A DNA stretch of 64,000 bases from Anaerolineales bacterium (GTDB lineage: Bacteria; Chloroflexota; Anaerolineae; Anaerolineales; Villigracilaceae), in NCBI GenBank assembly GCA_014379595.1, contig JACMLM010000040.1, forward strand, positions 1-64,000, read 5' to 3'. Shown here piece by piece: positions 12,508 to 49,324 of the stretch. Every line of letters begins with the position of its first letter. The stretch's first letter is position 1. Position numbers and translations under genes: made by a program. The notes under the pieces were generated by a model. The model made no database searches and was not told the origin of the DNA. It worked only from the letters and a program-made list of their open reading frames with translations.

Positions 12508-12634
12508 CCGTCATTGCGAGGATGTTATTTGCTCTTTCCGACGAAGCAATCTCCAACACTATCACGGAGATTGCTCACCGCACTGGCGTACGGCGCAAGT
12601 GTCGGGCAAAAGAACATTTCCCTCGCAATGACGG
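12508..12634. repeat. MITE-like dispersed repeat with 14-bp terminal inverted repeats
   Basis: CCGTCATTGCGAGG (12508-12521) and its exact complement (12621-12634) bound a 127-bp element containing inner inverted segments (GCAATCTCC / GGAGATTGC near 12545-12577). The CGTCATTGCGAG / GAAGCAATCTCC family is a known type of dispersed palindromic repeat in diverse bacteria. The right end directly abuts the stop codon of the ABC gene at 12635. It encodes nothing. Confidence 0.8.
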
Positions 12635-14443: not shown

Positions 14444-14472
14444 GTTATTTTCCTGTTTCATTCATACATTGA

Positions 14473-14607
14473 TGGTCGAGTAGGGCGAGTGTTTTTCTCG
14501 CCCGTATCGAGACCACATATCGCATGTTTACTTTTATTTTTTTGTTTCCCTTTAACTTGGTGGTTTCGATACGCCGCATAGACCAAGAGCGCGGCTACTC
14601 AACCACC
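14473..14607. repeat. composite palindromic repeat, copy 1 (two inverted units)
   Basis: Unit a (14473-14515) begins TGGTCGAGTAG and ends CGAGACCA with an internal GGGCGAG/CTCGCCC hairpin. Unit b (14559-14607) begins GGTGGTTTCGATACGCC and ends GGCTACTCAACCACC. Unit b is the inverted form of the same palindrome family, so the pair resembles a BIME (two REP units head to head). It fills the gap between the two ABC subunit genes. Two more composite copies lie at 46368-46518 and 46835-46965. Confidence 0.85.
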
Positions 14608-25999: not shown

Positions 26000-28900
26000 T
26001 GATTTCGTCTCTGGTAGGACCCAAATATTTTTCGATCATGTCTGCAAGATTTTGCATTTGTATAGGTTTACTGATGTAGTCGTTCATACCTGCGGCCAGG
26101 CATCTTTCGCTATCGCCGGACATGGCCAGCGCTGTCAGTGCAATGATAGGTGTGTTTTTCAGCGTTTTAATTGTACGTATCCTTTGAGTAGCTTCAAGCC
26201 CATCCATAATGGGCATCATTACATCCATAAGAATGAGATCGGGGTGTTCCTGTGTGGCTAATTGGATTGCGTGAGCACCATCGTGAGCTAGAATTACTTC
26301 ATAACCTTTATACCTTAAATATTCACTAATAAGCTGTACGACGACATCTGTATCTTCTACCAGTAAAATCCTTCCGTTGCGCTTTTCAGGTGGTTTTGGA
26401 GTGGGAAGTGAAAGCTCATCCACGATATCGGCCCTTTGTGTATGTTCGCTTGATAACCATGGCAAAGTGATAATGAAGCGGCTGCCTTTTTCTACTGTGC
26501 TTTCTACTCTTACCTGCCCGCCATGCAAGTTAACCATTTGAGCCACAAGCGCGAGCCCTAATCCTGTGCCTTGATATTCGCGCGCGAGGCCGGCATCCAG
26601 TTGAACGAATGGTTTGAAGAGGCGTTTTATGTCATCCTGTGCAATACCAACACCCTGATCCCAAACTGTGATTTCGACCTGATTCGTTTTCGTATTGCCA
26701 GAAACTTCCAGGCCAATTTCTTTTCCCTCTGGCGTGAATTTGACAGCATTACTAAGAAGATTCACAATCGATTGTTTCAACCTGCGTTGATCGGCGAGGA
26801 TAACTTCTATATTTCCTTTGACTTTAAAGGAAACATTCAATGATTTTTTCTGCGAAAGTTCCTTGATCATGCGTAAACTGGATTGGCAAAGTGCATCCAC
26901 TGATATTTGTTGAATATCAAGCTCCATTCGGCCCGCTTCTATCTTGGAAAGATCGAGGATATCGTTGATCAATTCCAATAAATGACGGCCGCTTTCTCGC
27001 ACAATGCCAATATATTTAAGTTGTTTCTCATTGAGATTACCAGCGATCTGTTCTTCAAGGCTTTCGGAAATGCCGAGAATGGAATTCAACGGAGTACGTA
27101 GTTCATGGCTCATATTTGCAAGAAATTCATTTTTGATACGTAAGGCACGTTCTATTTCTACTTTGGCGATGCGTTGAGCTTCCTCTGCTTTTTTATAAGC
27201 AGTAATGTCATGGGTGGTGTTGAGCACCAATTGCCTGTCATTAACTTTAAGCAGATACGAATGTAATTCGAGTGTATGAACGCGATCCCCGGGAACGTAG
27301 AATTCAAGCTCTACAGGGTCTGCTGGCTCGCCTCGCAAAATCTCTGATAAATATTTCTCTCTTTTTTCGAGCTCAGCTTCCGGGTATATCCCCAGTTGAT
27401 CCATGTGTTTGCCTCGGATATCAGCCCGAGAGAGATTATATTGTTTTTCGAATACTTCGTTGACGTCTACGATCAATCCGTTGTCTTCTGTAACAGATAC
27501 AGGATCAGGTACAGCGTCAAATAGCAAGCGCGCATAAGTTTCACTCTCGCGTAGAGATTGTTCTATTTGTTTGCGCTCTGTAATATCCATATTGATGCCG
27601 ATGATACGATCTGGTGTGCCATCAGGCGCATCAGCAGTGGCAGCGCTTGTCATAATATTGCGCACTGAACCATCAGGCCAAATGATGCGATGCTCATTAT
27701 TCATCAGCAAGTTTTTTGTAACAGCCAGTTGTCTATTGATTTGCGATTGTTCAATATCATCTGGGTGGATGAGCTGTGCCCATGTTTGCGAGGTTCCATC
27801 AAATTCCCCGGCAGGTACCTGGTGGATCATGTGCATGCGTTCATCCCAGATCACCTTGTTTTCTCTGGGATTGTATTCCCATACACCGATCTGTCCGGCG
27901 TGAGTAGCAAGCTCAAGACGGCGTTTTGTGACCTCGATCTGGGCAGTGCGTTCTGCTACACGTTGTTCTAGTTCTGCCGAGCGTTGGATGGTATCCTCGT
28001 AGAGACGCGCATTTTCAAATATGCTGGCAGCTTGTGTGGCTAAAATGGTTGTCAGTTGCTCATCTGATTTACTAAAAGCGTTTTCTTCTTCACTTTCAAT
28101 ACTGATCACGCCAATGATCCTGTCGCCGGCTTTGATGGGAACGTAAAGGCCTGAATGCAAACCTTCAAAGGTTTCAATATACCTATTATCATTTATTAAA
28201 TCGCCTGTGCGTACGGTCTCGCCATGTTGAATAACCCATCCAGTCAATCCCTGACCAGTATGTGAGATCATGGACTTGAAGCGCGTTTCCACTGCAAGCC
28301 GCTCTGCATCGCTTTTTATATCTGGTTGATGAAATGCGAGCAATTCCAACGTTTCATCTGCCGTGTTATATAAGCGAATAGCTGTATGATGCCAATTCAT
28401 TTTTTGTTCTAGGAGATCTATGATTTTCTGCCCTATCTCTTTGGGGTTGAGTAATTGGCTGATCGCCAAGCCACTTTCGTAGAGCAATTCCAATTCAGCG
28501 ACACGTTGGCGGGTTTCCTCAAATAGGCGGGTATTCTGAATAACAAGTGCGGCAGAGGATGCAAAAGTTGAAAGCGTAGTTAGTTCACCCTGGCTGAATG
28601 CCTCTTTGCGACTGGCATTATCCAAGGCGATGGCGCCTATGGCGCGACCATTAACCATAAGAGGGGCCACAATAGCACTTTGAACTGCCCCCATTTCTTC
28701 GATGTCCTGGTTATAACGGGTTGGTGCGTCGGCGCGAGCGTCGGCAATGATCAAAGGCTGAAGTTCTCTCACAGCGCGTGCAGAATAGCCGGAGGTGGAT
28801 GGGAAGCTGGCTGTGTGAATGCGTGGATCAAGATAACCGCTTAAAGCGCGAATTCTGAGAAAATTATCGGCGTCTAAAAGCAGAATCGCACCTTTTTCAG

Positions 28901-31900
28901 CTGCGGGAATGGCATGTAGTGCTGCGTCTAATAGGTTTTGCAGGAGGACATCCAAATCCAAGCTTTGGTTAAGCACCTGAGTTACCGAAGCCAATGCCTC
29001 CTGCTCACGTTCACGGTTCTTGCGGTCAGTGATGTCAGTGGTTGTGACAATGACTCTTGAGAAATCAGCCTCATAGCCTGGTGCAACAGACCAACTCAAA
29101 CTTATTTCGATTGGTTCGCCTAAAAGTGTTTCGTCGGTGCCTTCCCAATTTTGGCTCGTCTTTCCCTCGGCGATGGCTACTAGATCATCAATAACGTGTT
29201 CTAGTTCACCATCGCTCAAACCCTGGTCGAGAATCTTTAATAGAGCATCTTTGCTTTCTGCATGATACATCTTTAATGCAGTCTGGTTTATATCTAAAAT
29301 TTTGATCATTGCGGCGCATTCACGCAAGGCTTCGGGATTGGATTCGAAATACGCACGCAAATCTGTGATGCCTTGCTCCTTCATAGAATCCAGATATTTT
29401 TTAACGTCGGAAAAATCCTCCTCCCAAATTGCGATCGGCATATCTTCAAACAATCCGCGATAACGTTGTTCGCTTTCACGAACGGCCTTTTCCGCTTGCA
29501 TGCGTGCTGTAATATCGATCATTGAGATAATTACTTTGGAGAGATTAGCTTCATAGCCCGGCATAACGGATAGACTTAATTTGATAATGATCCGTCTGCC
29601 ATCAAGAGTTTGACTAACACCTTCCCATTCAAATTGGCTTTTTCCCTGCGCAATACTGATCAGTTCATTTTCGAATAACTCGGTCGGGTCATTATCTGTG
29701 AAGTGGGAAAGGATTTGGGTTAAATCATCCTTTGTTTTTGCCCCGAATAATTTCAGAGTAGCCTTGTTTACGTCGAGAATTTTTACGAGCGCAGCACACT
29801 CTCTTATCACCTGAGGATGCGTTTTAAAATAGACTCGGAAATCTTTTACGCCTTCATCTCGCAGCATATCCAGACGAAGTTTAATGGCTGAAAAATCCTC
29901 CTCCCAAAGCGAAACTGGTGAATCTTCAAATAGACTACGATAACGCGCTTCCCCTTCCCGTGCAGCTGCCTCTATTTGTTTGCGCTCGGTAATATCCTGG
30001 ATGATGCCAATGGAACCTTTAGGCATGCCTTTCTCATCAAGTACCTGAATGGAAGAATCGGAAATCCAGCGTTCCTCGCCTAAACGAGTGCGGATAAGAT
30101 GGTCACAGCGCCAAAAAATCCCGCTTTCTCCCTCACGCACAAGACTTACCGCTTCTGATAATGACATCCCTTCAAACCTTCCATGCATGACTGACTCTAC
30201 AATAAGTGTATCAAGCAAGGCTGGTGTGATCTCTTCAAGAACATAACCGGTAAGTTTTACAATTCCTTCGCCTATGAAAGTGTAATAGTCTGCGGCATAG
30301 TCCAGACTGTAGGGAATGGCATCTGCGGCGGCAATTGCCTGGCGAAAGCGTGCTTCACTTTCAGCAAGTATCTGATCAGCGTGTTTACGCTCAGTAATAT
30401 CACGCAATATTCCCTCGTGATATATTATTTTGCCCTGTTCATCATGCACATAGGATCCATGATCTTCGACCCATATTTCAGACCCATCCTTGCGCCGCAT
30501 CCGGTAAATATCCATCTCCTCCTGGCCGGTGTCTAAAATATGGCTTCCTCTTTCTTCAGGTTCAAAGTAAAGCTCATTTTTTATATCCACTGCCAGCATT
30601 TCTTCCCTGCTTGAATATCCAAACATATTAACCATGGCCGGGTTAACGTCTACAAACTTTCCTTCATGTTTGCTGCGGTATACACCATCCATCATGCGGG
30701 TGAACAATGAACGAAAGCGTTCTTCAGATTCTTGTAGAGCCTCTTCTGAGCGCTTGCGTTCGGTAATATCAATAAGGCTGCCTTCAAAAAATAATGGATT
30801 TCCAGCTTCATCTCTTATGACTTTAACATGATCCTCCAACCAAAAAGTTGCCCCATCTTTTTTGAGGAATTCCGCCTCCATGCTAGAGATGATATCAATC
30901 CTAACTATGCCGTCATTAAATTTCTTCATGATGGCAGGGTCAGCATAAAGGTCTTTGACCTTCACAGCTAATAAAGATTCCCGGTCTGGATAACCAAACA
31001 TCTTAACGAGTGTCGGGTTGGCATCCAGCATACGTCCGTCGATAGAGGTACGATAAAGTCCCACAGGGACATTTTCAAACAAGGTTCGATGCGCCTGCTC
31101 GGAATGCACAAGCGCGGCTTCGATTTGCTTGCGCTCAGTGATGTCGATCATCGAAACAATGACTCTGGACAGGGAATTTTCCGGGTCAGGAGCTGCGCGC
31201 CAACTTAAATCAATATTATTTGTTTTGCCATCCAGTGTTTTAATAATCCCTTCCCATCCGAAACTGGTTTTGCCCTCCGCGATGTTGACCAGCTCATTTT
31301 GAAATTGTTCAATGGGTTCGTCTTTTGACAACTCCGCGATGTTTTTAAGCAGGTCATCTTTTTTATGTGCACCGAATAATTTAATCGCTGCCTTGTTAAT
31401 ATCCAAAACTTTAACGAGAGATGCAAATTCGATTACTTTCTGGGGATGTAGTTTGAAGTATTCCTGGAAATTTGTTATCCCTTGTTTTCTCAAAGCTTCC
31501 AGGTGCTGTTTGACGGCTGAAAAATCCTCCTCCCAAAGCGCGATCGGCGAATCTTCAAAGAGACTTCGATAACGAGCCTCACTTGTATTCAAAGTCTTTT
31601 CCACTTGTTTTCGTTCGGTGATGTCATGGTTAATACTGAGGATGGCCTCTTTATTTTGATATTCAACAACCGAAGCATTAATCAGAAAATAGATCTTATC
31701 CCCATTCTTGTTTATGTGAATGCTCTCAAAATCACTATAAGACCCGCTTTTTAGCGTATCTCTGATCTGTGACTCGCCTTCCTCTATATTCATTGTCAAC
31801 TTTTTCAGGCTCATACCAATTAATTCGCTGCGGCTAAAACCGTATGTAGCACAGGCGGCCGCGTTAACTTGCAAGATGATCTCCTCCTCAGGCTCGAAAA

Positions 31901-33479
31901 TTATAATCACATCATTGGCACGATCGAAGAGACGCTGATAATCACCGCGGGTTTTATTGAGTGTCTCCTCGGCCTGCTTCCGTTCGGTGATATCGCGCGC
32001 CATACCTCGCACAACAGGCTCTGCGACGCCCTCACTTCGCACCGTATTTTGATATTCCCAAACGCGTCGTTCCCCGCTTTTGGTTTGGACCAATAAGACC
32101 CCAGATGCTGATCCGCGCCGTCTAAGTCTGCTTATATAATATTTGAAATGCTCCTTTACTTCGGGAGCTATAAAGTCATGAAGGTTTTTGCCAATTAACT
32201 CATTCAGTTTATATCCCAGTATTCGCGCCGATGCAGGGTTTGCGGTGAGGATGATGCCCTCCAGATCGTGTGTACAAATGAGATCCTGGCTGTTTTCAAC
32301 CAAGTCCCTGTAACGATCCTCGCTTTCTCTAATTCTATCTTCAGAGTCCTTCCGCTCGGTGACATCACGATAATTAATTACGATGGCTTGAACACTTGGC
32401 TCATTAAGCATATTAGTTGCAATCGCTTCAAACCAACGCCATGCCCCATCATTTCGCCTTAATCGGAAAGAGCCAGTCTGTCTGCTGGCTGGTTCTTGAA
32501 TAAGCTGCTTATATAAATTACTCATGTAATCTACATCATCTGGGTGCATTAACTCAAACATGTTGCGACCCACAAATTCATCTGGAGCATAGTCAAGATT
32601 GCGGATCACAGATGGGCTTTCCCAGATTAATGTCCCATCAGCAGCCAGAAGCGATATATCATCCAAGCTATTCTCGATCAGTGCACGGAAGCGTTTTTCA
32701 CTGGTATGTAATTCATCTTTAGCCTGCTTGCTTTCAGTGATATCTATTAAGGTTGACAAGATCGCAGGCTGCCCTTCATATTCTATTTGATCGTTAAATA
32801 CTTGTACCCAGCCAATAGATCCATCCTTTTTTAGAATTCGCACTTCAATATTTGGAGAAACGGTTTCGCCGGCCGTCCGTTTTTTGACACGTTCCTGTGA
32901 AATAGCGAGGTCATCCGGGTGTGTCATGGCAATAATCTGCTCTGCCGACATAGCCATAAGTTCTTTGTTTGTATATCCATTTATTCTGCTGAGGGCAGGG
33001 TTAGCAAATACCATTTTCTGTCTCTGAAAAATGGCGACACCCTGGATGGAGTTTTCCGTCAGGGTGCGGTATGTCGATTCGATCTGCTTACGTTCACGCC
33101 GAATTTCGGCATATTCAAGTTCACGCTCCACTGCAGGAACTAAGCGCGTTAAGTTGTCCTTCATCAGGAAGTCATGTGCACCAGCTTTCATCATAGCAAC
33201 AGCGGCTTCTTCCCCAATCGTGCCTGAAACAACGATAAATGGAATATCTAACCCTTCTTCACGCAAAAGCGAGAGTGCACTATAGCTGTCGAATTGAGGT
33301 AGGTTTTGGTCTGAGATGATAATATCCCAGGCGTGTATCTTTAGAGCTGTCTGCATTTGTTCCGCAGTTTCGACTCGTTCGAAAGTAAGCTTGTAGCCTG
33401 CTTTTTTTAATGCGCGGACGATCAACTGCGCATCACTTTCTGAATCCTCAACAATTAAAACGGCAAGCGGTTTTTGCAT
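25989..33479 (-). CDS. giant hybrid histidine kinase, REC-(PAS)x10-GAF-GAF-(PAS)x2-HisKA-HATPase-REC
   Basis: At 2496 residues this is far larger than an ordinary kinase. It has an N-terminal receiver (about 1-125), then ten PAS/PAC modules each ending in a DITERK-like linker, two GAF domains (about 1490-1830), two more PAS modules, HisKA with His2125 (ANMSHELRTPL), HATPase, and a C-terminal receiver (VILMDVMMPIMDG-like segment: LILMDVMMPIMDG). Three of the PAS modules share an unusual WEEDFS start (about 31.1-31.6, 29.5-30.0 and 29.0-29.5 kb) and look like internal duplications. There is no membrane segment. It follows the small receiver gene by two bases. Confidence 0.93.
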   Translation of the reverse strand: MQKPLAVLIVEDSESDAQLIVRALKKAGYKLTFERVETAEQMQTALKIHAWDIIISDQNLPQFDSYSALSLLREEGLDIPFIVVSGTIGEEAAVAMMKAGAHDFLMKDNLTRLVPAVERELEYAEIRRERKQIESTYRTLTENSIQGVAIFQRQKMVFANPALSRINGYTNKELMAMSAEQIIAMTHPDDLAISQERVKKRTAGETVSPNIEVRILKKDGSIGWVQVFNDQIEYEGQPAILSTLIDITESKQAKDELHTSEKRFRALIENSLDDISLLAADGTLIWESPSVIRNLDYAPDEFVGRNMFELMHPDDVDYMSNLYKQLIQEPASRQTGSFRLRRNDGAWRWFEAIATNMLNEPSVQAIVINYRDVTERKDSEDRIRESEDRYRDLVENSQDLICTHDLEGIILTANPASARILGYKLNELIGKNLHDFIAPEVKEHFKYYISRLRRRGSASGVLLVQTKSGERRVWEYQNTVRSEGVAEPVVRGMARDITERKQAEETLNKTRGDYQRLFDRANDVIIIFEPEEEIILQVNAAACATYGFSRSELIGMSLKKLTMNIEEGESQIRDTLKSGSYSDFESIHINKNGDKIYFLINASVVEYQNKEAILSINHDITERKQVEKTLNTSEARYRSLFEDSPIALWEEDFSAVKQHLEALRKQGITNFQEYFKLHPQKVIEFASLVKVLDINKAAIKLFGAHKKDDLLKNIAELSKDEPIEQFQNELVNIAEGKTSFGWEGIIKTLDGKTNNIDLSWRAAPDPENSLSRVIVSMIDITERKQIEAALVHSEQAHRTLFENVPVGLYRTSIDGRMLDANPTLVKMFGYPDRESLLAVKVKDLYADPAIMKKFNDGIVRIDIISSMEAEFLKKDGATFWLEDHVKVIRDEAGNPLFFEGSLIDITERKRSEEALQESEERFRSLFTRMMDGVYRSKHEGKFVDVNPAMVNMFGYSSREEMLAVDIKNELYFEPEERGSHILDTGQEEMDIYRMRRKDGSEIWVEDHGSYVHDEQGKIIYHEGILRDITERKHADQILAESEARFRQAIAAADAIPYSLDYAADYYTFIGEGIVKLTGYVLEEITPALLDTLIVESVMHGRFEGMSLSEAVSLVREGESGIFWRCDHLIRTRLGEERWISDSSIQVLDEKGMPKGSIGIIQDITERKQIEAAAREGEARYRSLFEDSPVSLWEEDFSAIKLRLDMLRDEGVKDFRVYFKTHPQVIRECAALVKILDVNKATLKLFGAKTKDDLTQILSHFTDNDPTELFENELISIAQGKSQFEWEGVSQTLDGRRIIIKLSLSVMPGYEANLSKVIISMIDITARMQAEKAVRESEQRYRGLFEDMPIAIWEEDFSDVKKYLDSMKEQGITDLRAYFESNPEALRECAAMIKILDINQTALKMYHAESKDALLKILDQGLSDGELEHVIDDLVAIAEGKTSQNWEGTDETLLGEPIEISLSWSVAPGYEADFSRVIVTTTDITDRKNREREQEALASVTQVLNQSLDLDVLLQNLLDAALHAIPAAEKGAILLLDADNFLRIRALSGYLDPRIHTASFPSTSGYSARAVRELQPLIIADARADAPTRYNQDIEEMGAVQSAIVAPLMVNGRAIGAIALDNASRKEAFSQGELTTLSTFASSAALVIQNTRLFEETRQRVAELELLYESGLAISQLLNPKEIGQKIIDLLEQKMNWHHTAIRLYNTADETLELLAFHQPDIKSDAERLAVETRFKSMISHTGQGLTGWVIQHGETVRTGDLINDNRYIETFEGLHSGLYVPIKAGDRIIGVISIESEEENAFSKSDEQLTTILATQAASIFENARLYEDTIQRSAELEQRVAERTAQIEVTKRRLELATHAGQIGVWEYNPRENKVIWDERMHMIHQVPAGEFDGTSQTWAQLIHPDDIEQSQINRQLAVTKNLLMNNEHRIIWPDGSVRNIMTSAATADAPDGTPDRIIGINMDITERKQIEQSLRESETYARLLFDAVPDPVSVTEDNGLIVDVNEVFEKQYNLSRADIRGKHMDQLGIYPEAELEKREKYLSEILRGEPADPVELEFYVPGDRVHTLELHSYLLKVNDRQLVLNTTHDITAYKKAEEAQRIAKVEIERALRIKNEFLANMSHELRTPLNSILGISESLEEQIAGNLNEKQLKYIGIVRESGRHLLELINDILDLSKIEAGRMELDIQQISVDALCQSSLRMIKELSQKKSLNVSFKVKGNIEVILADQRRLKQSIVNLLSNAVKFTPEGKEIGLEVSGNTKTNQVEITVWDQGVGIAQDDIKRLFKPFVQLDAGLAREYQGTGLGLALVAQMVNLHGGQVRVESTVEKGSRFIITLPWLSSEHTQRADIVDELSLPTPKPPEKRNGRILLVEDTDVVVQLISEYLRYKGYEVILAHDGAHAIQLATQEHPDLILMDVMMPIMDGLEATQRIRTIKTLKNTPIIALTALAMSGDSERCLAAGMNDYISKPIQMQNLADMIEKYLGPTRDEINEQ

Positions 33480-33481
33480 TC

Positions 33482-33928
33482 TTATCTCACTTTAGGCGGC
33501 GGCGGTTCATTCATCACCAGCCAGTACAGACCCAGGTGCTGGATCGCTTCTACAAATTTTGTGAAGTCAACTGGTTTGCGTACATAACTGTTGGCACGCA
33601 GATCATATCCCTGCGCGATGTCCGGTTCTTCCTGGGAGGTGGTCAGGATCACGACAGGCAATCGACTGGTACGCTCATCGGCGCGAATCTGCCTCAGAAC
33701 ATCCAGCCCGCCTACACGTGGAAGTTTAAGATCGAGCAGGATCAAGGCTGGCAGCTCGTTCAAATCTCGACCTGTATACTTGCCGCCTCCGAATAGATAA
33801 TCCAGCGCTTCCTGCCCGTCTTCCACTACGATCATTTCGTTTGCAATATGACTCTTGGCAAGCGCACGTTGGGTCAGACCAATGTCGCTGGGGTTATCTT
33901 CCACGAGTAGAATGACTTTTTGTTTCAT
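33482..33928 (-). CDS. single-domain response regulator, Rcp1-like
   Basis: The 148-residue protein is a lone receiver with Asp66 in LILLDLKLPRVGG and the conserved Lys in YVRKPVDFTKF. The insertion before the Asp strand and the LPRVGGLDVLRQIR pattern resemble the Rcp1 regulators that partner phytochrome-type kinases. It overlaps the end of the kinase gene at 33925 by four bases, so the two are a likely cognate pair. Confidence 0.93.
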   Translation of the reverse strand: MKQKVILLVEDNPSDIGLTQRALAKSHIANEMIVVEDGQEALDYLFGGGKYTGRDLNELPALILLDLKLPRVGGLDVLRQIRADERTSRLPVVILTTSQEEPDIAQGYDLRANSYVRKPVDFTKFVEAIQHLGLYWLVMNEPPPPKVR

Positions 33929-36900
33929 TTTTTATCCTCTAATGTAAAGTAGAAAGTAGCCCCTTGGTCCACTTCAGATGATGCCCATATACTTCCCCCA
34001 TGCCGATTAATAACACGTTGAACGGTTGCCAACCCAACGCCAGTGCCAGGAAATTCTGAAACCCTATGCATACGTTGAAAGGCTCCAAATAATTTATTTG
34101 CATACGTCATGTCGAATCCTGCGCCGTTATCACATACGAAGAAGGCATTTTCGCCCTCTACAACGGTTTGTCCAAACTCAATATGCGCATCTTGCTTCTT
34201 GCTTGTAAACTTGAAGGCGTTGCCTAAAAGGTTTGTAAGAACAATATCCAACAGTTTTGGGTCCCCCATTGCTGTCACCCCTTTTTGAATGACAAATTCC
34301 ACTTGTCTATCTTCCGATTTTATTTCCTGCAGGCGGGCTACTACGGTTTCGGCTATAGCACTCAAATCAACCTTTTCTTTATTCATCTCTGCACGAGTAA
34401 TGCGAGAGAGTTGTAATATATCATCAATGAGTACTCCCATACGCTGGGTTTCAGCACGTACTCGTTGAATATGAGCCTGCCCTTGTTCATCAAGCAGGCC
34501 TCCGTAATCCTCCAATAAAGCCAGTCCCCAACCATCAATGCCTCGTAATGGGGAGCGCAGGTCGTGGGAAACTGAATACGAAAATGCTTCCAGTTCTTTG
34601 TTAACTGCTTCAAGTTGGGAAGTACGTTCTGTGATACGTTCTTCAAGAGTTTCGTTTAGTATCCGAATTTCCTCTTCAGACTCTTTGCGTTCAGTAATAT
34701 CCTGACTGGTACCAAACCATGATATGGGGTGACGGGTGTCATCTTCGCCCTCATAGTAAACGCGTGCCTGCACAGCCAGCCAATGAACAGAGCCATTTGG
34801 ATGAATGACGCGATATTCCGTTCCATAACGGCCGTCGCTAGCGGGATCATTTGTAGTAGCGACGGCCTGATTTAATCGATCTATATCATCAGGATGGACA
34901 TGAGCAATAACATCTGCAAGTGGTACATTCTCTGCTTCAAAACCATAATGAGCACTAGCACGTTCATCAAAGTTAATCATTCCTGTTGTAATGATATTCT
35001 GCCATATACCGAGTTTGGCAGTGTCGTAACCGAGGCGTAATAATTCTTCACTTTTATACAACTCCGCCTCTACCTTTTTGCGCTGATTGAGTAAATGAAT
35101 ACGATCCAATGTCACTGCTAAATGGCTCGATAGTGCTCTTAGATAGTCTAATTGTGCTGAAGTAGGTATGTGAACGCCCTCATCACCAAAAGTTCCTGTG
35201 CCAAAAATACCCAGTTGTTTATCCATAAATATGATTGGGACATTTACAATCGTGCGATTTCCCAACTGTTCTACGATCTCTTTGTTAGTACGAGGATCGA
35301 TACGGGCATCCTCTACTAAAATAATATCCTTTCCTTCAGAAATTTCTTCTAGAAAACGATCTCCCTTAATTTTCAATGTCATAAAGTCATCTGTGACATC
35401 TTGCGATATTCCTCCTGTCATGGTCAACAGTTTTAGTTGTTCCTTATCTTCTGATAACAAATACGCCCATACATTTTGATAACCAAGAACGATTTTCACT
35501 TCATCAAGTGCAGCACCAAGCGCTTCAGAATAAGCCTGAGCCTGCTCCAACTTCTTGGAGAGACGTAATAAGGACCGGGCATTGCTCTCACTCTCACGTA
35601 ATGCATTTTCTGCATGATTGCGTTCTGTAACATCGAAAAAGATAGAAAGGATACAGGCTTCACCGCTAAGTGAAATTGTTTCTAATGAGAACAGCATGTC
35701 ACGTATACTGCCAGACTTTGTCCTAAGTTTAGTTTCGTAAGAGCGAACTGATCCGTGTTCGCTCAATTGCGCGTCAATTTTTTGACGCGCAGCAGGGTCA
35801 TCAATAATATTCAAGCTAAGCGCGGCATTGCCAACTAATTCTTCACGCTGATATTCTAGAATTTTTTCGTAACTTTCATTCACGTCGATTACTTGTCCAT
35901 CAGACATACGCGTAATGATCATTGCGGCTGGGTTGGATTGGAAAGCTTTTGAAAATCTTTCTTCTGATTGCTGCAATGCTGCTTCTGATTGTTTGCGCTC
36001 GCTGATATCGCGATTAATACTCAAAAGTCCTGTCACTTGTCCACTCTCATTGTAGAGGCTCACAGTGCTTGCATCAACATATACAGGTTGCCCATCCTTG
36101 CGGTATTGTGTAAGCTGAATATGATATTCACCACTTTCATGTAGTTGACGCAATATTTCATTCCTCTGAGTACTGGTCATATCAGAGGGTAATATCTCTG
36201 TTGTTTTATGCCCTACAGCTTCATCTGCACTCCAACCATATAATATTTCAGCTCCATGATTCCAGACTGTGATGTTGTATTGATCGTCGGTAGCGATGAC
36301 AGCATCATTAATTTTCTTTAACAAGTGAGCCTGGTATTCAACTTGTGCTTTGATTTGTTTGCTTTCAGTAATATCCTGAATAGTACCGATCATTTTTACA
36401 GGCCGATTCTCAGAATCAAATTCCAATTCGCCCAGAGTGTGCACCCAGCGTTCCGCCTGATCATTTTTTCTAATGATCCTATATTCCTTGTCGAAACGGA
36501 TGCGCTTACCGATCACTTCATTTGAAAAATAATCACTCATCATTTGCCTGTCATTGGGATGAATCAGAGTTGGCCATGTTTCCATGGTTCGTTCAAATGT
36601 ATCGTCAACACCTAATATATGATCAAATATTTCCGAGCCCTTCCAATTTCCAGTTGTCAGGTCAATAAAGTAATTACCCAGGCCGGCAATGCTTTGTGTT
36701 TGTTTTAGTTGTTTTTCGTTTTCCAACAAGGCCAGTTCCACCCGTTTGCGTTCATTGAGTTCAAGTTGAAGCTGATTGTTGGCCTCTATTAATTCGACTG
36801 TACGCTCCGCTACCTTTACTTCCAACTCATCCTTTGTGTTTCGCAAAAATTCTTCAGCATGTTTACGCTCAGTGATATCTCTGGAAATACCGAAGGTGCC

Positions 36901-38142
36901 AATGACCTTTCCCTCCTGGTTACGAAGCGGTACCTTGGTTGTTGAAACCCATGTCTTTTTGCCATCTGGCCAGATTACCTCTTCCTCGAAATCGACCAAG
37001 GGCTTGCCTGAGCGTATTATCTCCTGCTCTTCATCAAAAGACCGTTGAGCATGAGGAAAAAAATCAAAGTCTGTTTTCCCAACAACCAGCATTGGATCAT
37101 TCAGCCCCAGTGCAGCGGCCTGGGATTTGCTGTTTTTTATAAAGCGGCTCTCGGAGTCTTTGAAATAAATCTGATCAGGCACATATTCCAACATGGTTTC
37201 GAGTAGTGCAGTGGTTTGAGATAGCGCGGTTGTTCGCTGTTGAAATTGGCGTTCCAATTCATCATATATTTTTTGACTAGACTCTTCTGTCTGTTTCCGC
37301 CCGGTAATGTCAATGGCTGTGGAAAGTACACAGGTCTCATGGTTTAGTTCAATAATTTCCATTGAACCAAGGACAACGCACAGCCGGCCAGATTTATTCT
37401 TTAAGACCATTTCCTGATTATGAATAAAACCCTGTTCACTGATTTGGCGACTATAATCCTGCCGCTGTTCAGGGCTTGTAATATTTAATTCCAGAGAAGT
37501 CTGGCCGGTAAGTTCTTCAAGACTAAAGCCGGTAATTTCAGAAAAGGCATCATTGGCGTCAATATATGTGCCGTCTGACGCGCGCGTAATGGCAAGTCCT
37601 ACTGGAACTGAGCGAAAGGTTTTCCGAAAGCGTTCTTCACTTTCGTTTAGAACTTCTTCTGTTTTTTCCACTCGGGCGCGTACCGTTTCTGTCACCATGC
37701 GGCTCACGACCAACCCGGCTATCAGCATGGCATAATTTATGAGCGTGGCGATATTGGCATACACACCTGTGCCGCCGGCGCGCACAAGTAAAAGACCAAT
37801 GGTAACCACAGCGCTTCCAATGACCCAAAGCGGGTTAACCAGAACCAATGCCAGAATAGGAGCTAATAAAAGAAGAAATGGGGCGTACATGGTAACAAAC
37901 GGTTCTGGTAAAAACACAGCAACAATCAAAGTGATAAGTACAACCGATATGTGACGCGCATATTCCCAGCCGCGTATATAAGCAAAAAGCATCCCGCCAT
38001 AAACTACAGCGGCGATGCCGGCTCCTAATGTAAGATTACTATCGCTCTGTTTCGAGAAGATTTGGTTCAGCCAAAGGATAGTAATAGACATCCATTGAAA
38101 ACCGAGGACTGCGATTGTTGCTTGACGTTGTGAGATGTTCAT
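33925..38142 (-). CDS. membrane multi-PAS sensor histidine kinase with phytochrome-type kinase core
   Basis: The 1405-residue protein starts with five or six membrane helices (about 10-155). Five PAS modules, a GAF domain (about 870-1030) and a sixth PAS follow. The kinase core has a coiled [30 protein letters not shown]-type region (split here: key residues [10 protein letters not shown], His1193), [17 protein letters not shown] and GTGVGLATV boxes. That core is the cyanobacterial/bacteriophytochrome class, which fits the Rcp1-like receiver encoded next. No bilin-binding PHY domain is present. It is the first gene of the signalling run. Confidence 0.93.
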   Translation of the reverse strand: [1405 protein letters not shown]

Positions 38143-45579: not shown

Positions 45580-46362
45580 ATGACTAAGATTTACGACCTC
45601 TCTCAAGACTTGAATCAAGATGCCTCGTTCTGGCCGTTTTATCCGCCGTTTGAAGTGAAGTACATCAAACGCAAATCAGAGCATGGAGTCAATGCACAAT
45701 ATATCCAGACTTCGAATCACATGGGCACTCATCTGGATGCGCCGCGGCATTTTGTGACCAAAGGTAAGACGATAGATCAAATTCCGATCGAGTGGTGTTA
45801 TGGACCTGGCGTGATCGTGGACTTGAGTGACATGCTCGATGATGTCGGGATCTTCACACCTGAAGATATCGAGAAGCGCGCAGATGTGCAGGACGGCGAT
45901 ATTTTGTTCATCCACACAGGCTGGCATAAATATTCATTCTTTAGCCCCGATGCGGATGAAGAGCGATATATTCAAAGACATCCTGGCCCGCATTTTAGCA
46001 TTTGCGACTGGTTGTTGAAAAAGAAGATCCACATCTGGGGTGTGGATATGATCTCCACTGATCATCCGATGAACTTGCCGATAGGTCGTTTCCTTGGCAA
46101 AGGTGGATTGGAACACTGGCAGAGAGTCCGCGCGAAGACAGTGGAGAAATTTGGTGAAGATCAAATGGAAGTATTGTTCCCTGATTCGGCTTATCAGTTA
46201 ACACATAATGCCTTGTTCCCACATGACTGCATGCACGTTGAAAACCTTGGTGGTGATATTGGATTGAAGGAATTACATAACAAACGCATCACGCTCGGCG
46301 TCTTCCCGTGGAAGTTCAAAGGCGGCGAAGCAGCGTTTTGTAGAGCGGTGGCTTGGGCGTAA
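45580..46362 (+). CDS. cyclase-family metal-dependent hydrolase
   Basis: The 260-residue protein has the family metal motif HMGTHLDAPRHF (about 47-58) and a later GHGD-equivalent region with HTGWHKYS and VDMISTDHP. The family includes kynurenine formamidase and isatin hydrolase, which open N-formyl or lactam bonds. In this operon a ring-opening or ureide-cleaving step fits. An AGGAG lies before the ATG, 11 bases after the DUF1116 stop. It is the last gene before the repeat-flanked GIY-YIG cassette. Confidence 0.88.
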   Translation: MTKIYDLSQDLNQDASFWPFYPPFEVKYIKRKSEHGVNAQYIQTSNHMGTHLDAPRHFVTKGKTIDQIPIEWCYGPGVIVDLSDMLDDVGIFTPEDIEKRADVQDGDILFIHTGWHKYSFFSPDADEERYIQRHPGPHFSICDWLLKKKIHIWGVDMISTDHPMNLPIGRFLGKGGLEHWQRVRAKTVEKFGEDQMEVLFPDSAYQLTHNALFPHDCMHVENLGGDIGLKELHNKRITLGVFPWKFKGGEAAFCRAVAWA

Positions 46363-46367
46363 CCCCG

Positions 46368-46518
46368 TTGGTCGAGTAGGCGGTGTTCGTCCGCCGTACA
46401 CTTGCACCTGGCGCAAGTGCAGGTGTCGAGACCAACAGTTGGTTTCAAACTTTGAGTAACTTGAAAACCTGTGGTCTCGGTACGCCGCAAAGAGCAAGAG
46501 CGCGGCTACTCGACCACC
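46368..46518. repeat. composite palindromic repeat, copy 2 (two inverted units)
   Basis: Unit a (46368-46435) starts TTGGTCGAGTAGGCGG and ends CGAGACCAA, with an extra internal hairpin (CACTTGC/GCAAGTG) not seen in the other copies. Unit b (46471-46518) starts GTGGTCTCGGTACGCC and ends GGCTACTCGACCACC. It begins five bases after the cyclase stop and ends just before the GIY-YIG gene. Confidence 0.9.
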
Positions 46519-46543
46519 GACTTTGGATGAAACAAGAATTCAT

Positions 46544-46846
46544 ATGGCATGGATGTATATTCTCAAATGCTCAGACGATTCGTACTACGTTGGTTCAACA
46601 AAGAATCTTGATCTTCGTATGACTCAACATCAATCAGGTAAAGGCTCAAGATATACATCAGGAAGATTGCCAGTGGAGCTTGTTTATGGCGAAGAATACG
46701 ATAGAGTTTCTGATGCATATTATCGCGAGAAACAAGTACAAAACTGGGGCAGGTCGAAGAGAGAAGCATTGATTGATGGAAAGCCTGAATTGCTTTCTGC
46801 GTTGGCGAAAAAGAAGTTTTACAAGAATCCTCCGTTGGTCGAGTAG
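46544..46846 (+). CDS. GIY-YIG nuclease family protein
   Basis: About 100 residues form a lone GIY-YIG domain: WMYILKCSDDSYYVGST (the paired Tyr motifs), Arg in DLRMTQHQSG, and the metal-binding Glu in AYYREKQVQNW. No DNA-binding domain is attached. The start is taken at the ATG at 46544, where family similarity begins; an in-frame ATG at 46523 is possible. The last codons (PLVE, stop) are read from the TTGGTCGAGTAG repeat, so the repeat supplies the stop codon. The gene sits between two composite repeats and interrupts the Mo hydroxylase operon. Confidence 0.88.
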   Translation: MAWMYILKCSDDSYYVGSTKNLDLRMTQHQSGKGSRYTSGRLPVELVYGEEYDRVSDAYYREKQVQNWGRSKREALIDGKPELLSALAKKKFYKNPPLVE

Positions 46847-46965
46847 AGCGAGTGTTTTTCTCGCTCATACCGAGACCAACAAGTAACATGTAAACAAGTT
46901 ATTTCTTGAAACGTGGTGGTCTCGATACGCCCTTCGCAAACACCGCTCAGGGCTACTCGACCACC
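46835..46965. repeat. composite palindromic repeat, copy 3 (two inverted units)
   Basis: Unit a (46835-46879) starts TTGGTCGAGTAG, contains AGCGAG/CTCGCT and ends CGAGACCAA. Unit b (46915-46965) starts GGTGGTCTCGATACGCC and ends GGCTACTCGACCACC. It overlaps the last four codons of the GIY-YIG gene and ends 26 bases before the coxL start. Unit a is nearly identical to unit a of copy 1 at 14473. Confidence 0.92.
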
Positions 46966-46990
46966 GATTATGAATGTAATTGGAGTCTTT

Positions 46991-49324
46991 ATGACCACTC
47001 GATACTTCGGCGAACGGATCAAGCGCAATGAAGACCCGCGTCTGCTCACGGGGCAGGGATTGTTTGTAGACGATGTGGATTTACCGAACATGCTCCATGT
47101 TGCCTTCGTGCGGAGTCCGTATGCGCACGCGCGGATAAATAACATTGATGTGTCTCAAGCTTTGCAGCGCGAAGGCGTAGTTGCTATTTACACTGCGAAT
47201 GATTTGGGTGATTACTGGAAACCTGGTCCGTTGTTGGTTTCGCCGCCGCCAGTTGACGATATCGTTTTCAATGAAAAGACTCAGGTTCCCTTAGCCAAGG
47301 ATAAGGTCAAGTTTGCGGGGGAGCCGATCGTGATGGTACTGGCAGAGAGTCGCTACATTGCCGAGGATGCGCTTGCTGATATTCAAATAGATTATGAACC
47401 TCTTGAAGCGGTTGTTGATCTTGAAAAAGCACTTCAACCTGACAGCACTTTGATTCATGAAGAGATTGGTTCGAACATTGCCGCGCATGTTGTACAAAGA
47501 AAAGGCGATTATGAAGCCATAAAAGATAATGCTGCCTTAATTATTAAACGTCGTTTTCTTTACGAGCACGGATGCGCCGCCGCCATCGAGAATCGCGGCA
47601 TCGTCGCGGAGTGGGATGCGCGCGCGGGGCGATTAACTGTCTGGGACACGACACAAGCTCCAGTTGTGATCCGCAATGGACTCGCAGGTATGCTCGGGTT
47701 ATCTGAAAGACAAGTCCGCGTCATTGCACCGTTCATCGGTGGGGGATTTGGTCCGAAGATCATGATGTTCTATCAGGAGGAAGTGCTCGTCCCGTGGGCG
47801 GCGATGAAGTTGAACCGCCCCGTCAAATGGATCGAAGACCGCGCCGAAAATTTTGTCGCCACCACACACGAGCGTGGACAAATCCACGATGCGGAGATCG
47901 CATTCGATAAGGAGGGTCGCATTCTCGGCGTGCATGATGTTTTTCTGCATGACACAGGTGCGTATGCTCCGTATGGTTTGACCGTGCCGCTCAACAGCTC
48001 ATGCACCTTGCTTGGGCCATACGATATCAAAAATTATTACAGTGAATTCACAGCAGTTTTTACAAATAAAACAATCGTCACACCGTATCGAGGCGCAGGA
48101 CGTCAACATGGCGTGTTCGTCATTGAGCGTGCCTTGGATATTGCCGCAAAAGAATTAAAAATCGACCGCGCCGAAATACGTCGACGCAATTTCATCCCGC
48201 CCGATAAGTTCCCATACAACAACGAGATCATCTATCAGGACTTTGCTCCGCTTGTATATGATAGCGGCAACTATGAGCCGTTATTAGATCAAGCATTGGA
48301 ACGAATGGATTATCACAAATTCATCAATGAGATTCAACCGAAGTTACGCGCCGAAGGCAAACACGTTGGCATTGGCATTGTCGCGTATGTGGAAGGCACA
48401 GGCATTGGACCCTACGAAGGCGCGAAGGTACAGGTGATGAGCAGTGGACGAGTCTCGGTCGTCACAGGTGTTGGCACGCAGGGACAGGGTCATTTCACGA
48501 GTTTCGCGCAGATCGTCGCGGAGCAAATCGGCGTGGATGTAAACAAAATCGATGTCGTCACAGGTGACACCGACCAGTTCTATTGGGGTGCGGGGACGTT
48601 TGCCAGCCGCGGCGCGGTCGTTGCGGGCAATGCCATCAATGAAGCCGCGATCGTTGTGCGCAAGAAAATTCTCAAACTCGCATCCGAACATTTCAACGCG
48701 CCCGAAGATGAACTCGAACTCGCCGATGGAATGGTGAGCGTGCAGGACGTGCCGCGCATGTCCATTTCGCTGGGCGAACTGGCGGGCAAAGCGAATCCGA
48801 TGCGCGGAGCGGTCAAGCCAGGGACAGAGCCTGGTTTGGAAGCGACCAGCTATTTCGGTCCAGAAAGAGGCGCCACTGCCAGCGGCATCCACGCCATGAT
48901 CGTGGAGGTCAATCCCGAGACGCTGCAGATCCACATCCAAAAATATCTCGTCGTGCACGATTGCGGCAAGGTGATTAATCCTCTCATTCTCGATGGACAA
49001 ATTCACGGTGGTGTTGCGCAGGGAATCGGTAACGCCTTTTATGAACGTCTCGCCTACGACGAAAACGGGCAACTGCTCAACGGCACGTTCATGGATTATC
49101 ACCTGCCCACCAGCCTGGATGTGCCGCGCATCGAAACGGGACATGGCGTAACGCTTTCGCCGCTCAACCCGATGGGCGTGAAGGGCGCGGGCGAAGCTGG
49201 CGCGATCCCTGTCGGTCCGCTGTTTGCTCAGGCATTGGAAGACGCCTTGCATGATGTGGATTTTGAGATTTTGGAAATTCCACTGAATTCGAATCGGTTG
49301 TGGGAGATTGTGAATGGTAAATAG
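46991..49324 (+). CDS. Mo hydroxylase large subunit (CoxL/XdhA-like, form II type)
   Basis: Molybdopterin-cytosine-dinucleotide-binding catalytic subunit. The 777 residues have YFGERIKRNEDPRLLTG at the start, IGGGFGPK, and the C-terminal GVKGAGEAGAIPVGP with the catalytic Glu. The active-site loop reads TPYRGAGR, not the AYxCSFR of true aerobic CO dehydrogenase, so the substrate is not CO. I choose the ATG at 46991 with GGAG five bases upstream; longer readings run into the repeat. The gene has been split from coxM and coxS by four catabolic genes and the GIY-YIG cassette. A terminator follows. Confidence 0.94.
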   Translation: MTTRYFGERIKRNEDPRLLTGQGLFVDDVDLPNMLHVAFVRSPYAHARINNIDVSQALQREGVVAIYTANDLGDYWKPGPLLVSPPPVDDIVFNEKTQVPLAKDKVKFAGEPIVMVLAESRYIAEDALADIQIDYEPLEAVVDLEKALQPDSTLIHEEIGSNIAAHVVQRKGDYEAIKDNAALIIKRRFLYEHGCAAAIENRGIVAEWDARAGRLTVWDTTQAPVVIRNGLAGMLGLSERQVRVIAPFIGGGFGPKIMMFYQEEVLVPWAAMKLNRPVKWIEDRAENFVATTHERGQIHDAEIAFDKEGRILGVHDVFLHDTGAYAPYGLTVPLNSSCTLLGPYDIKNYYSEFTAVFTNKTIVTPYRGAGRQHGVFVIERALDIAAKELKIDRAEIRRRNFIPPDKFPYNNEIIYQDFAPLVYDSGNYEPLLDQALERMDYHKFINEIQPKLRAEGKHVGIGIVAYVEGTGIGPYEGAKVQVMSSGRVSVVTGVGTQGQGHFTSFAQIVAEQIGVDVNKIDVVTGDTDQFYWGAGTFASRGAVVAGNAINEAAIVVRKKILKLASEHFNAPEDELELADGMVSVQDVPRMSISLGELAGKANPMRGAVKPGTEPGLEATSYFGPERGATASGIHAMIVEVNPETLQIHIQKYLVVHDCGKVINPLILDGQIHGGVAQGIGNAFYERLAYDENGQLLNGTFMDYHLPTSLDVPRIETGHGVTLSPLNPMGVKGAGEAGAIPVGPLFAQALEDALHDVDFEILEIPLNSNRLWEIVNGK

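What the first reader, a model, noticed from the sequence alone, without database searches (positions are those of the whole stretch)
46368..46965. GIY-YIG nuclease cassette bounded by composite palindromic repeats, inserted in a catabolic operon
A single-domain GIY-YIG gene lies between two copies of a two-unit palindromic repeat, takes its stop codon from the repeat, and separates coxL from the rest of its operon. A further repeat copy without a nuclease is at 14473-14607. The layout resembles REP elements and the RAYT transposases that move them, but with a GIY-YIG enzyme, which could be a repeat-cutting or -spreading endonuclease. No such system is known to me.
Basis: partly seen in the sequence, partly recalled or inferred. 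Interest (0 to 1): 0.75.

Follow-up and report, generated by a model that had tools for sequence, protein, structure and literature searches.

The report
DNA-cutting enzyme with matching hairpin repeats
A small DNA-cutting enzyme gene sits between copies of a scattered hairpin-forming DNA repeat, and the same pairing of enzyme and repeat recurs in bacteria of several phyla, suggesting that enzymes of this kind act on, and perhaps spread, such repeats.

Summary
A single-domain GIY-YIG nuclease gene (46544-46846) lies between two dimers of a dispersed hairpin repeat, takes its stop codon from it, and a nuclease-free dimer lies at 14472-14607. The link is far wider. Of the 80 relatives kept (573 confirmed; ten phyla as labelled) 62 have a hairpin [stem]GAG...TCGA[stem'] within 350 bp: 3.5 per kb near, 0.09 per kb far, none near in reversed sequence. 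The base after GAG pairs with a distal base in 221 of 234 units, and hairpin class follows the protein tree even within phyla. In 61 related genomes 0 of 42 YxGWT-class GIY-YIG genes share repeats between their flanks, against 14 of 15 and 33 of 44 in two other classes; the last goes with TGTCATTCTGAG- and CGTC-type repeats. Of 35 Y1 transposase loci none has the repeat motif within 500 bp. The cassette is at this junction in 2 of 15 genomes, the own included. Best explanation: a repeat-partnered nuclease whose substrate is the hairpin, working like RAYT-REP with another enzyme. From memory, the GIY-YIG ssDNA nucleases Ssn (2025, not held) are nearest. Cutting and spreading are inferred.

The parts
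46368..46518 (.). upstream repeat dimer: unit TTGGTCGAGTAG...GTGTCGAGACCAA, spacer, inverted unit GTGGTCTCGGTACG...CTACTCGACCACC
   Evidence: by eye in the unit printed, the left unit holds an extra small palindrome behind its inner stem
46544..46846 (+). single-domain GIY-YIG nuclease gene (100 aa), stop codon inside the downstream repeat
   Evidence: PF01541 E 5.6e-18; Y5, Y15, G17, H29, E62 in 77 of 77 and R25 in 76 of 77 uninterrupted relatives
46835..46965 (.). downstream repeat dimer
   Evidence: DNA fold z -5.9
14472..14607 (.). same repeat dimer without a nuclease, between two genes that read as ABC transporters (by eye)
   Evidence: present in 4 of 19 junctions read, own included
45580..46362 (+). 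upstream neighbour: PF04199 cyclase
46991..49324 (+). downstream neighbour: molybdopterin-binding oxidoreductase large subunit (coxL-like)
12509..12633 (.). a repeat dimer of the second class (CGTCATTGCGAGG...CGAAGCAATCTCC with an inverted copy), not beside a GIY-YIG gene
   Evidence: one search lists no GIY-YIG hit near it

Best explanation
The cassette is a repeat-partnered GIY-YIG nuclease. The protein recognises, and most likely nicks as single-stranded or cruciform DNA, the hairpins that flank its own gene and are dispersed through the genome. Shown here: the pairing of one GIY-YIG subfamily with one structurally defined hairpin family over several phyla, covariation within the hairpin, agreement of hairpin class with the protein tree, purifying selection and intact active-site residues, and presence or absence of cassette and dimers at orthologous sites. 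Inferred: that the hairpin is the substrate, that it is cut as ssDNA or as a branched structure, and that cutting followed by repair or recombination keeps, copies and relocates repeats and cassette. It works like a RAYT-REP pair, with a GIY-YIG enzyme in place of the HUH transposase.
For: All 12 strong subfamily hits in 61 Anaerolineales genomes have repeats on the flanks (11 by 11-mers shared between the flanks; G012 by motif). Of the 80 loci kept from a capped list, 62 have a descriptor hairpin within 350 bp, 36 on both sides; reversed control 0 near. 51 of 76 testable loci share repeats between the flanks. Base N after GAG pairs with N' in 221 of 234 units (shuffled 81.4, sd 7.1). Own genome: inner stem of 4 bp or more in 30 of 34 units read, 23 different sequences. 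Hairpin class GAGT/GAGC/GAGG needs 10 changes on the protein tree, 31.7 when shuffled (0 of 200 as low), 22.6 when shuffled within phyla (0 of 300). dN/dS 0.03-0.13 in 11 of 14 pairs, several with high dS. Cassette absent from 13 of 15 junctions read. 26 Chloroflexota cassettes fall in about ten contexts (my grouping). In the genus, genomes with the gene hold more repeats (10 v 27, Mann-Whitney p 0.0076). Motif within 500 bp of Y1 transposases: 0 of 35.
Against: No cleavage or mobility was measured. Four of 27 genomes of the genus without the gene are very repeat-rich (70-133 hits); two of these are incomplete assemblies (77 and 87%), but G021 is a single contig, 99% complete. The subfamily has one copy per genome here and several cassettes share a site across species, so recent movement of the gene is rare. 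18 of 80 loci lack a descriptor hairpin near the gene and 25 of 76 lack shared flanks, partly because contigs end. None of the 13 cassette-free cyclase-coxL junctions holds a unit of this family, so insertion of the gene into an existing repeat is not seen. No target duplication was seen by eye. Agreement of class and tree is partly plain descent; the cross-phylum cases are few. The GAGG count in the genome of L108 (19 v 3 reversed) has a parallel in Nocardioides, a genome of the GAGT class (11 v 3).
Confidence: 0.7

Rival explanations
1. The repeats are moved by another enzyme (a RAYT or other transposase), and the GIY-YIG gene is only a passenger that was caught between two repeats and travels by recombination between them.
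For: Repeats are abundant without the gene in G003, G004, G011, G021; the genome has eight Y1 transposase hits, and 10 of 35 Y1 loci have shared flanking repeats of their own.
Against: 0 of 35 Y1 loci have the TGGTYGAGTAG motif within 500 bp and 1 of 35 any such hairpin. A passenger should not be one GIY-YIG class and not another (0 of 42 YxGWT), nor should hairpin class follow its tree. Other transposase families were not tested.
Confidence: 0.12
2. A GIY-YIG nuclease with cognate sites that limits or shapes uptake and recombination of incoming single-stranded DNA (transformation, conjugation), as I recall for Ssn of Neisseria; the repeats are kept as sites and are not spread by the enzyme.
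For: A Neisseria relative has CGTC (dRS3-type) repeats on both sides; the Ssn paper is recalled, not read.
Against: Dimers are present at 4 of 19 orthologous places read, so repeats are gained or lost; nothing tested here speaks on uptake.
Confidence: 0.35
3. Homing endonuclease: it cuts repeat sites that lack the gene and is copied in by repair using the flanking repeats as homology.
For: The gene lies between repeats, or inside a repeat dimer (G037); about ten contexts.
Against: 0 of 13 cassette-free junctions at this site hold a unit of this family; one copy per genome.
Confidence: 0.15
4. The repeats are ordinary transcription terminators or RNA elements that happen to collect at small foreign genes.
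For: Stable hairpins in intergenic places.
Against: Small GIY-YIG genes of the YxGWT class in the same genomes have none (0 of 42); class follows the nuclease tree. Random small genes were not tested.
Confidence: 0.04

Closest known systems
Ssn, site-specific single-stranded nuclease family of the GIY-YIG superfamily with a sequence (NTS) in hundreds of copies in Neisseria (recalled: Nature Communications 2025; not found or held)
   Same: Small GIY-YIG enzyme with a cognate sequence in many copies; the Neisseria GIY-YIG gene found here has CGTC/dRS3 repeats on both sides, as the window gene has its own.
   Different: The window protein is 30% identical to that Neisseria protein and belongs to another class (YxGST) with another hairpin ([S]GA-G-N..N'-Y-C-GA[S'] instead of CGTC). 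Whether the Ssn paper covers this class, and whether L360 is the Ssn gene, I could not check.
REP/REPIN repeats with RAYT (HUH Y1) transposases; GTAG REPs (PMC3733652: abstract, sections 5, 6, 8, 16, first part of 17 and passages seen)
   Same: Short dispersed hairpins, inverted dimers, enzyme gene flanked by its repeats.
   Different: Enzyme is GIY-YIG; GTAG is not a terminal unpaired tag here and is absent in GAGC/GAGG classes; the Y1 genes tested are not beside the repeat.
CGTC REP superfamily (same paper: 'apparently lack a dedicated transposase')
   Same: Found here beside GIY-YIG genes of the second class: CGTC hairpins within 400 bp in 6 of 11 loci read, of 31 records hit.
   Different: The window repeat is not a CGTC repeat.
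UPF0213 GIY-YIG proteins (PDB 1zg2, 1ywl)
   Same: Nearest solved structures by sequence and by fold.
   Different: The YxGWT class, which I take from memory to be the UPF0213/YhbQ kind, has no shared flanking repeats in 42 of 42 genes.

Membership tests
RAYT-REP | HUH Y1 transposase linked to the repeat | tested here: not met
   Protein is PF01541; Y1 loci with the motif within 500 bp 0 of 35
RAYT-REP | terminal unpaired GTAG tag at the hairpin foot | tested here: not met
   GAGTAG lies inside the outer stem; GAGC/GAGG classes lack it
RAYT-REP | enzyme gene flanked by inverted repeat dimers | tested here: met
Ssn GIY-YIG nuclease (features recalled) | single GIY-YIG domain with intact active-site residues | tested here: met
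Ssn GIY-YIG nuclease (features recalled) | cognate sequence repeated in the genome and near the gene | tested here: met
   that it is cognate is inferred
Ssn GIY-YIG nuclease (features recalled) | site-specific cleavage of single-stranded DNA | not testable with these tools
   needs purified protein
Ssn GIY-YIG nuclease (features recalled) | sequence kinship with the Neisseria enzyme | tested here: inconclusive
   30% identity over 76 aa; profiles of the two classes match, E 1.7e-22, as GIY-YIG proteins would; identity of L360 with Ssn is my assumption
GIY-YIG homing endonuclease | gene interrupts its own target site, intact in alleles without it | tested here: inconclusive
   If the repeat is the target: 0 of 13 cassette-free junctions at this one site hold it; site B was not decisive; another target cannot be excluded
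insertion sequence | target-site duplication and several near-identical copies | tested here: inconclusive
   one copy per genome; no duplication seen by eye in the elements printed

The most novel reading that the evidence does not exclude
Small GIY-YIG nucleases are a second, RAYT-independent machinery for the dispersed palindromes of bacteria: distinct nuclease classes each recognise their own hairpin class (GAG/YCGA hairpins; TGTCATTCTGAG/CATTGCGAG hairpins; CGTC REPs), are inherited together with them, at times across phyla, and spread them by nicking single strands, which would account for large REP families so far without a transposase.
Probability: 0.35. Interest if true: 0.9.

Novelty: new variant of a known kind. 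Interest (0 to 1): 0.72.

Why it matters
Dispersed palindromes are widespread non-coding repeats of bacteria, and the CGTC superfamily was published in 2013 as apparently lacking a dedicated transposase (PMC3733652). Here several such families are tied to defined enzyme classes, with a hairpin consensus that can be made as an oligonucleotide and a protein of 100 residues that can be expressed. That makes the question of what makes and spreads these repeats directly testable, and gives predicted hairpin specificities for many nucleases.

Tried and rejected
RAYT as the partner: rejected for these repeats, although 10 of 35 Y1 loci have shared flanking repeats of their own; other transposase families were not tested. 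Search by exact motif alone missed Bacteroidota; replaced by flank-sharing and the structural descriptor. Search of the literature by repeat letters listed unrelated papers only. Ten paper searches were made; I saw the listed rows only: (20 of 280; 14 of 14; 20 of 89; 20 of 38; 20 of 67; 20 of 132; 20 of 101; 7 of 7; 0), 111 (20 of 44). No listed title or abstract start links GIY-YIG genes with dispersed palindromes. The library lacks most subscription papers and preprints, so this is no proof of absence. PMC5797428, PMC10928387 and PMC12306157: passages found by term only. PMC3733652: abstract, outline, sections 5, 6, 8, 16, first part of 17, and passages. The Ssn paper was not found and not read; all I say of it is recalled.

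Counts and dropped rows. One search gave some wrong protein readings because those loci are in contig orientation; one search replaced it. The census used 111 rows of the listing, which was cut at its end; I left out the UvrC-type rows and their fragments and two hits in long frames (G042:C51, G038:C604). controls left out three truncated loci and the subfamily members. could test 76 of 80. One search read units in the window and in 30 own-genome loci, not in all 42 places. One search left out L106 (frameshifted) and loci without a unit: 68 rows labelled. The second-class test took 30 loci, one per genome, of 95 genomes with a hit among 198. Of 31 plasmid-collection records 11 were read. Of the 30 coxL loci, the 15 most alike were read. 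One search read 19 of 21 loci. One search tested 35 of 37 Y1 loci (two too short). Site B was not decisive: most relatives have other genes downstream.

Full report
The finding checked. The window holds a GIY-YIG gene (46544-46846; PF01541 E 5.6e-18) between two repeat dimers at 46368-46518 and 46835-46965; the stop codon is the TAG of TTGGTCGAGTAG. The neighbours are a cyclase and a molybdopterin-binding large subunit. A dimer without nuclease lies at 14472-14607. The genome (4.47 Mb, 72 contigs) has 63 exact TGGTCGAGTAG against 2 reversed, in 42 places. It has five GIY-YIG hits (one in a long UvrC-like frame); only the window gene has the repeat within 1.5 kb.

Is the pairing general? Among the GIY-YIG loci of 61 related genomes first read, the eight with this motif close to the gene are all of one subfamily (...YYVGST...REKQVQ.WSRAKREALI). 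In G037, of another family, which holds only four copies of TGGTYGAGTAG, two of the four bracket the gene. A profile of the subfamily gave strong hits (148 bits or more) in 12 of 61 genomes, one each; 11 of the 12 share repeats between their flanks and the twelfth, G012, has the motif on both sides.

Beyond the order. A scan of genome contigs kept the best 80 of 573 confirmed relatives: 44 Bacteroidota, 15 Chloroflexota, 11 Actinomycetota, ten others (labels; one 'Bacillota' record groups with Microbacterium and may be mislabelled). Of the 15 Chloroflexota loci 14 have the window's motif within 500 bp (not L108; L118 on one side), of 11 Actinomycetota 10 do, 8 of them on both sides; Bacteroidota mostly carry other sequences. 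Without any assumed motif, 51 of 76 testable loci share 22 bp or more between 300 bp upstream and downstream; windows placed elsewhere in the same loci share 0-10 bp on average. The different sequences obey one plan: outer stem, GAG, inner stem and loop, YCGA, outer stem. The TCGA form occurs 187 times in 53.6 kb next to the genes (3.49 per kb) against 45 in 486 kb further away (0.093 per kb), and 0 times near the genes in reversed sequence (6 far); 62 of 80 loci have at least one, 36 on both sides. Of 41 other GIY-YIG loci 2 have it (L052, L053, whose proteins stand near the subfamily), of 8 own Y1 transposase loci none.

The hairpin is under structural constraint. With GAG and YCGA fixed by the search, the base after GAG and the base before YCGA were free; they are complementary in 221 of 234 units in 68 of 80 loci, 81.4 (sd 7.1) expected by shuffling; 8 of the 13 exceptions lie in one locus. 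In the own genome 30 of 34 units read have an inner stem of at least 4 bp, with 23 different stem sequences. This suggests tandem G-A mismatches and one bulged pyrimidine between two stems; this reading of the geometry is inference. Whole dimers can fold as a junction of several arms.

Hairpin class follows the protein. Labelling loci GAGT, GAGC or GAGG, the protein tree (92 columns, many weak branches) needs 10 changes; shuffled 31.7, none of 200 as low; shuffled within phyla 22.6, none of 300; Bacteroidota alone 8 against 15.8, none of 500. The Anaerolineales locus L108 nests among Bacteroidota-type proteins and carries GAGG hairpins. Its genome has 19 TGAGGNNCTCGAA against 3 reversed, that of L094 (Anaerolineales, GAGT) 3 against 1; but that of L173 (Nocardioides, GAGT) has 11 against 3, and those of L125 and L113 6 against 1 and 4 against 0, so the genome-wide counts support the point only in part.

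The gene is kept. dN/dS is 0.03-0.13 in 11 of 14 pairs, some with dS above 1; three pairs were saturated. Y5, Y15, G17, H29 and E62 are invariant in 77 of 77 and R25 in 76 of 77; 3 of 80 copies are interrupted, and that of G015 is frameshifted. That these are the catalytic positions is knowledge of the GIY-YIG family, not a call. The AlphaFold2 model (pLDDT 89.9) matches UPF0213 proteins and, weakly, the branched-DNA nuclease Slx1 (6seh, E 0.29).

Presence and absence. Of 15 cyclase-coxL junctions read, own included, 2 hold the cassette (G000, G015). G018 and G038 have two or three bases between the genes, G050 a short spacer, and ten hold palindromes of three unrelated families (G025 a further gene as well; by eye). 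L096 is another carrier. The junction at 14472 holds the dimer in 4 of 19 read (G000, G012, G015, G021), with different inner stems, and in G012 one unit sits inside another. The 26 Chloroflexota cassettes compared share a flanking gene in 63 of 325 pairs, which I group into about ten contexts. So the gene is inherited at some sites for long and changes place now and then. In the genus, gene-bearing genomes have more repeats (p 0.0076; repeat-rich 8 of 10 with, 11 of 27 without). Against: four rich genomes have no gene found.

A second class. In the same 61 genomes flank sharing was found for 0 of 42 YxGWT, 14 of 15 YxGST, 33 of 44 testable YxG[VIM]T and 2 of 9 other GIY-YIG genes; control windows 38 of 4804. 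The YxGST set is the 12 subfamily genes, L275, and two of another kind next to a tRNA-Pro gene (L086, L314). Several YxG[VIM]T genes have repeats such as TGTCATTCTGAGCG...CGAAGAATC, TGTCATCCTGAG..., CGTTGCGAGG...CGAAGCAATC. In the phylum of Chryseobacterium (L113) 25 of 30 loci of this class have flank sharing, control 15 of 285 windows. On plasmid-collection records 8 of 11 loci read show it, CGTC hairpins lie within 400 bp in 6 of 11, either in 10 of 11 (not L363), among them Neisseria, Azospirillum, Rhizobium, Shinella. CGTC repeats were described as apparently lacking a dedicated transposase and as including dRS3 of Neisseria (PMC3733652, abstract and section 6).

Interpretation. The evidence fits a nuclease whose cognate site is the hairpin. 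It works like RAYT-REP but is not a member: wrong enzyme, no terminal GTAG tag. The nearest known system, from memory only, is the Ssn family of GIY-YIG ssDNA-specific nucleases of 2025, worked out in Neisseria with a sequence present in hundreds of copies. If that paper already treats the YxGST class, the window gene is a plain member; the hairpin consensus, its covariation and its agreement with the protein tree may still be additions. Whether the enzyme spreads the repeats or only cuts them is open.

Noticed in passing
L086 286-361 and L314 72-147: In two genomes (G001, G033) the match of a further small GIY-YIG type (RRLQEHN.GRS) begins 4 and 6 bases behind a tRNA-Pro(TGG) gene; in L086 copies of parts of that tRNA lie on both sides (by eye).
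   Followed up: partly
cyclase-coxL junction, window 46363-46990; relatives L205-L216: The junction is a hot spot for unrelated palindromes: CATTGCGAGG type (G021, G004, G032, G025), AATTCTCCAATTCTC type (G001, G029, G039), AGTCTC type (G031, G011, G014); by eye.
   Followed up: partly
L404 (G012), junction matching window 14472-14607: A complete repeat unit sits inside another unit, as if a single unit had inserted.
   Followed up: no
window 12509-12633: Dimer of the second repeat class (CGTCATTGCGAGG) without a GIY-YIG gene beside it.
   Followed up: no
G131 contig C86 45030-46140 (listing): Three second-class GIY-YIG genes in a row; genomes of that phylum hold up to ten matches of this class.
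   Followed up: no
L361 1489-1782: In Azospirillum lipoferum a GIY-YIG gene with CGTC repeats lies between sufB and sufC, again inside an operon.
   Followed up: no
L365: In Planktothrix a second-class GIY-YIG gene with TGTCATTCTGAG repeats lies between an MmeI-type enzyme and drmA of a DISARM defence system.
   Followed up: no
window 27540-37661: Many diverged repeats of about 36-81 nt, with the look of a long series of related domains; not analysed.
   Followed up: no
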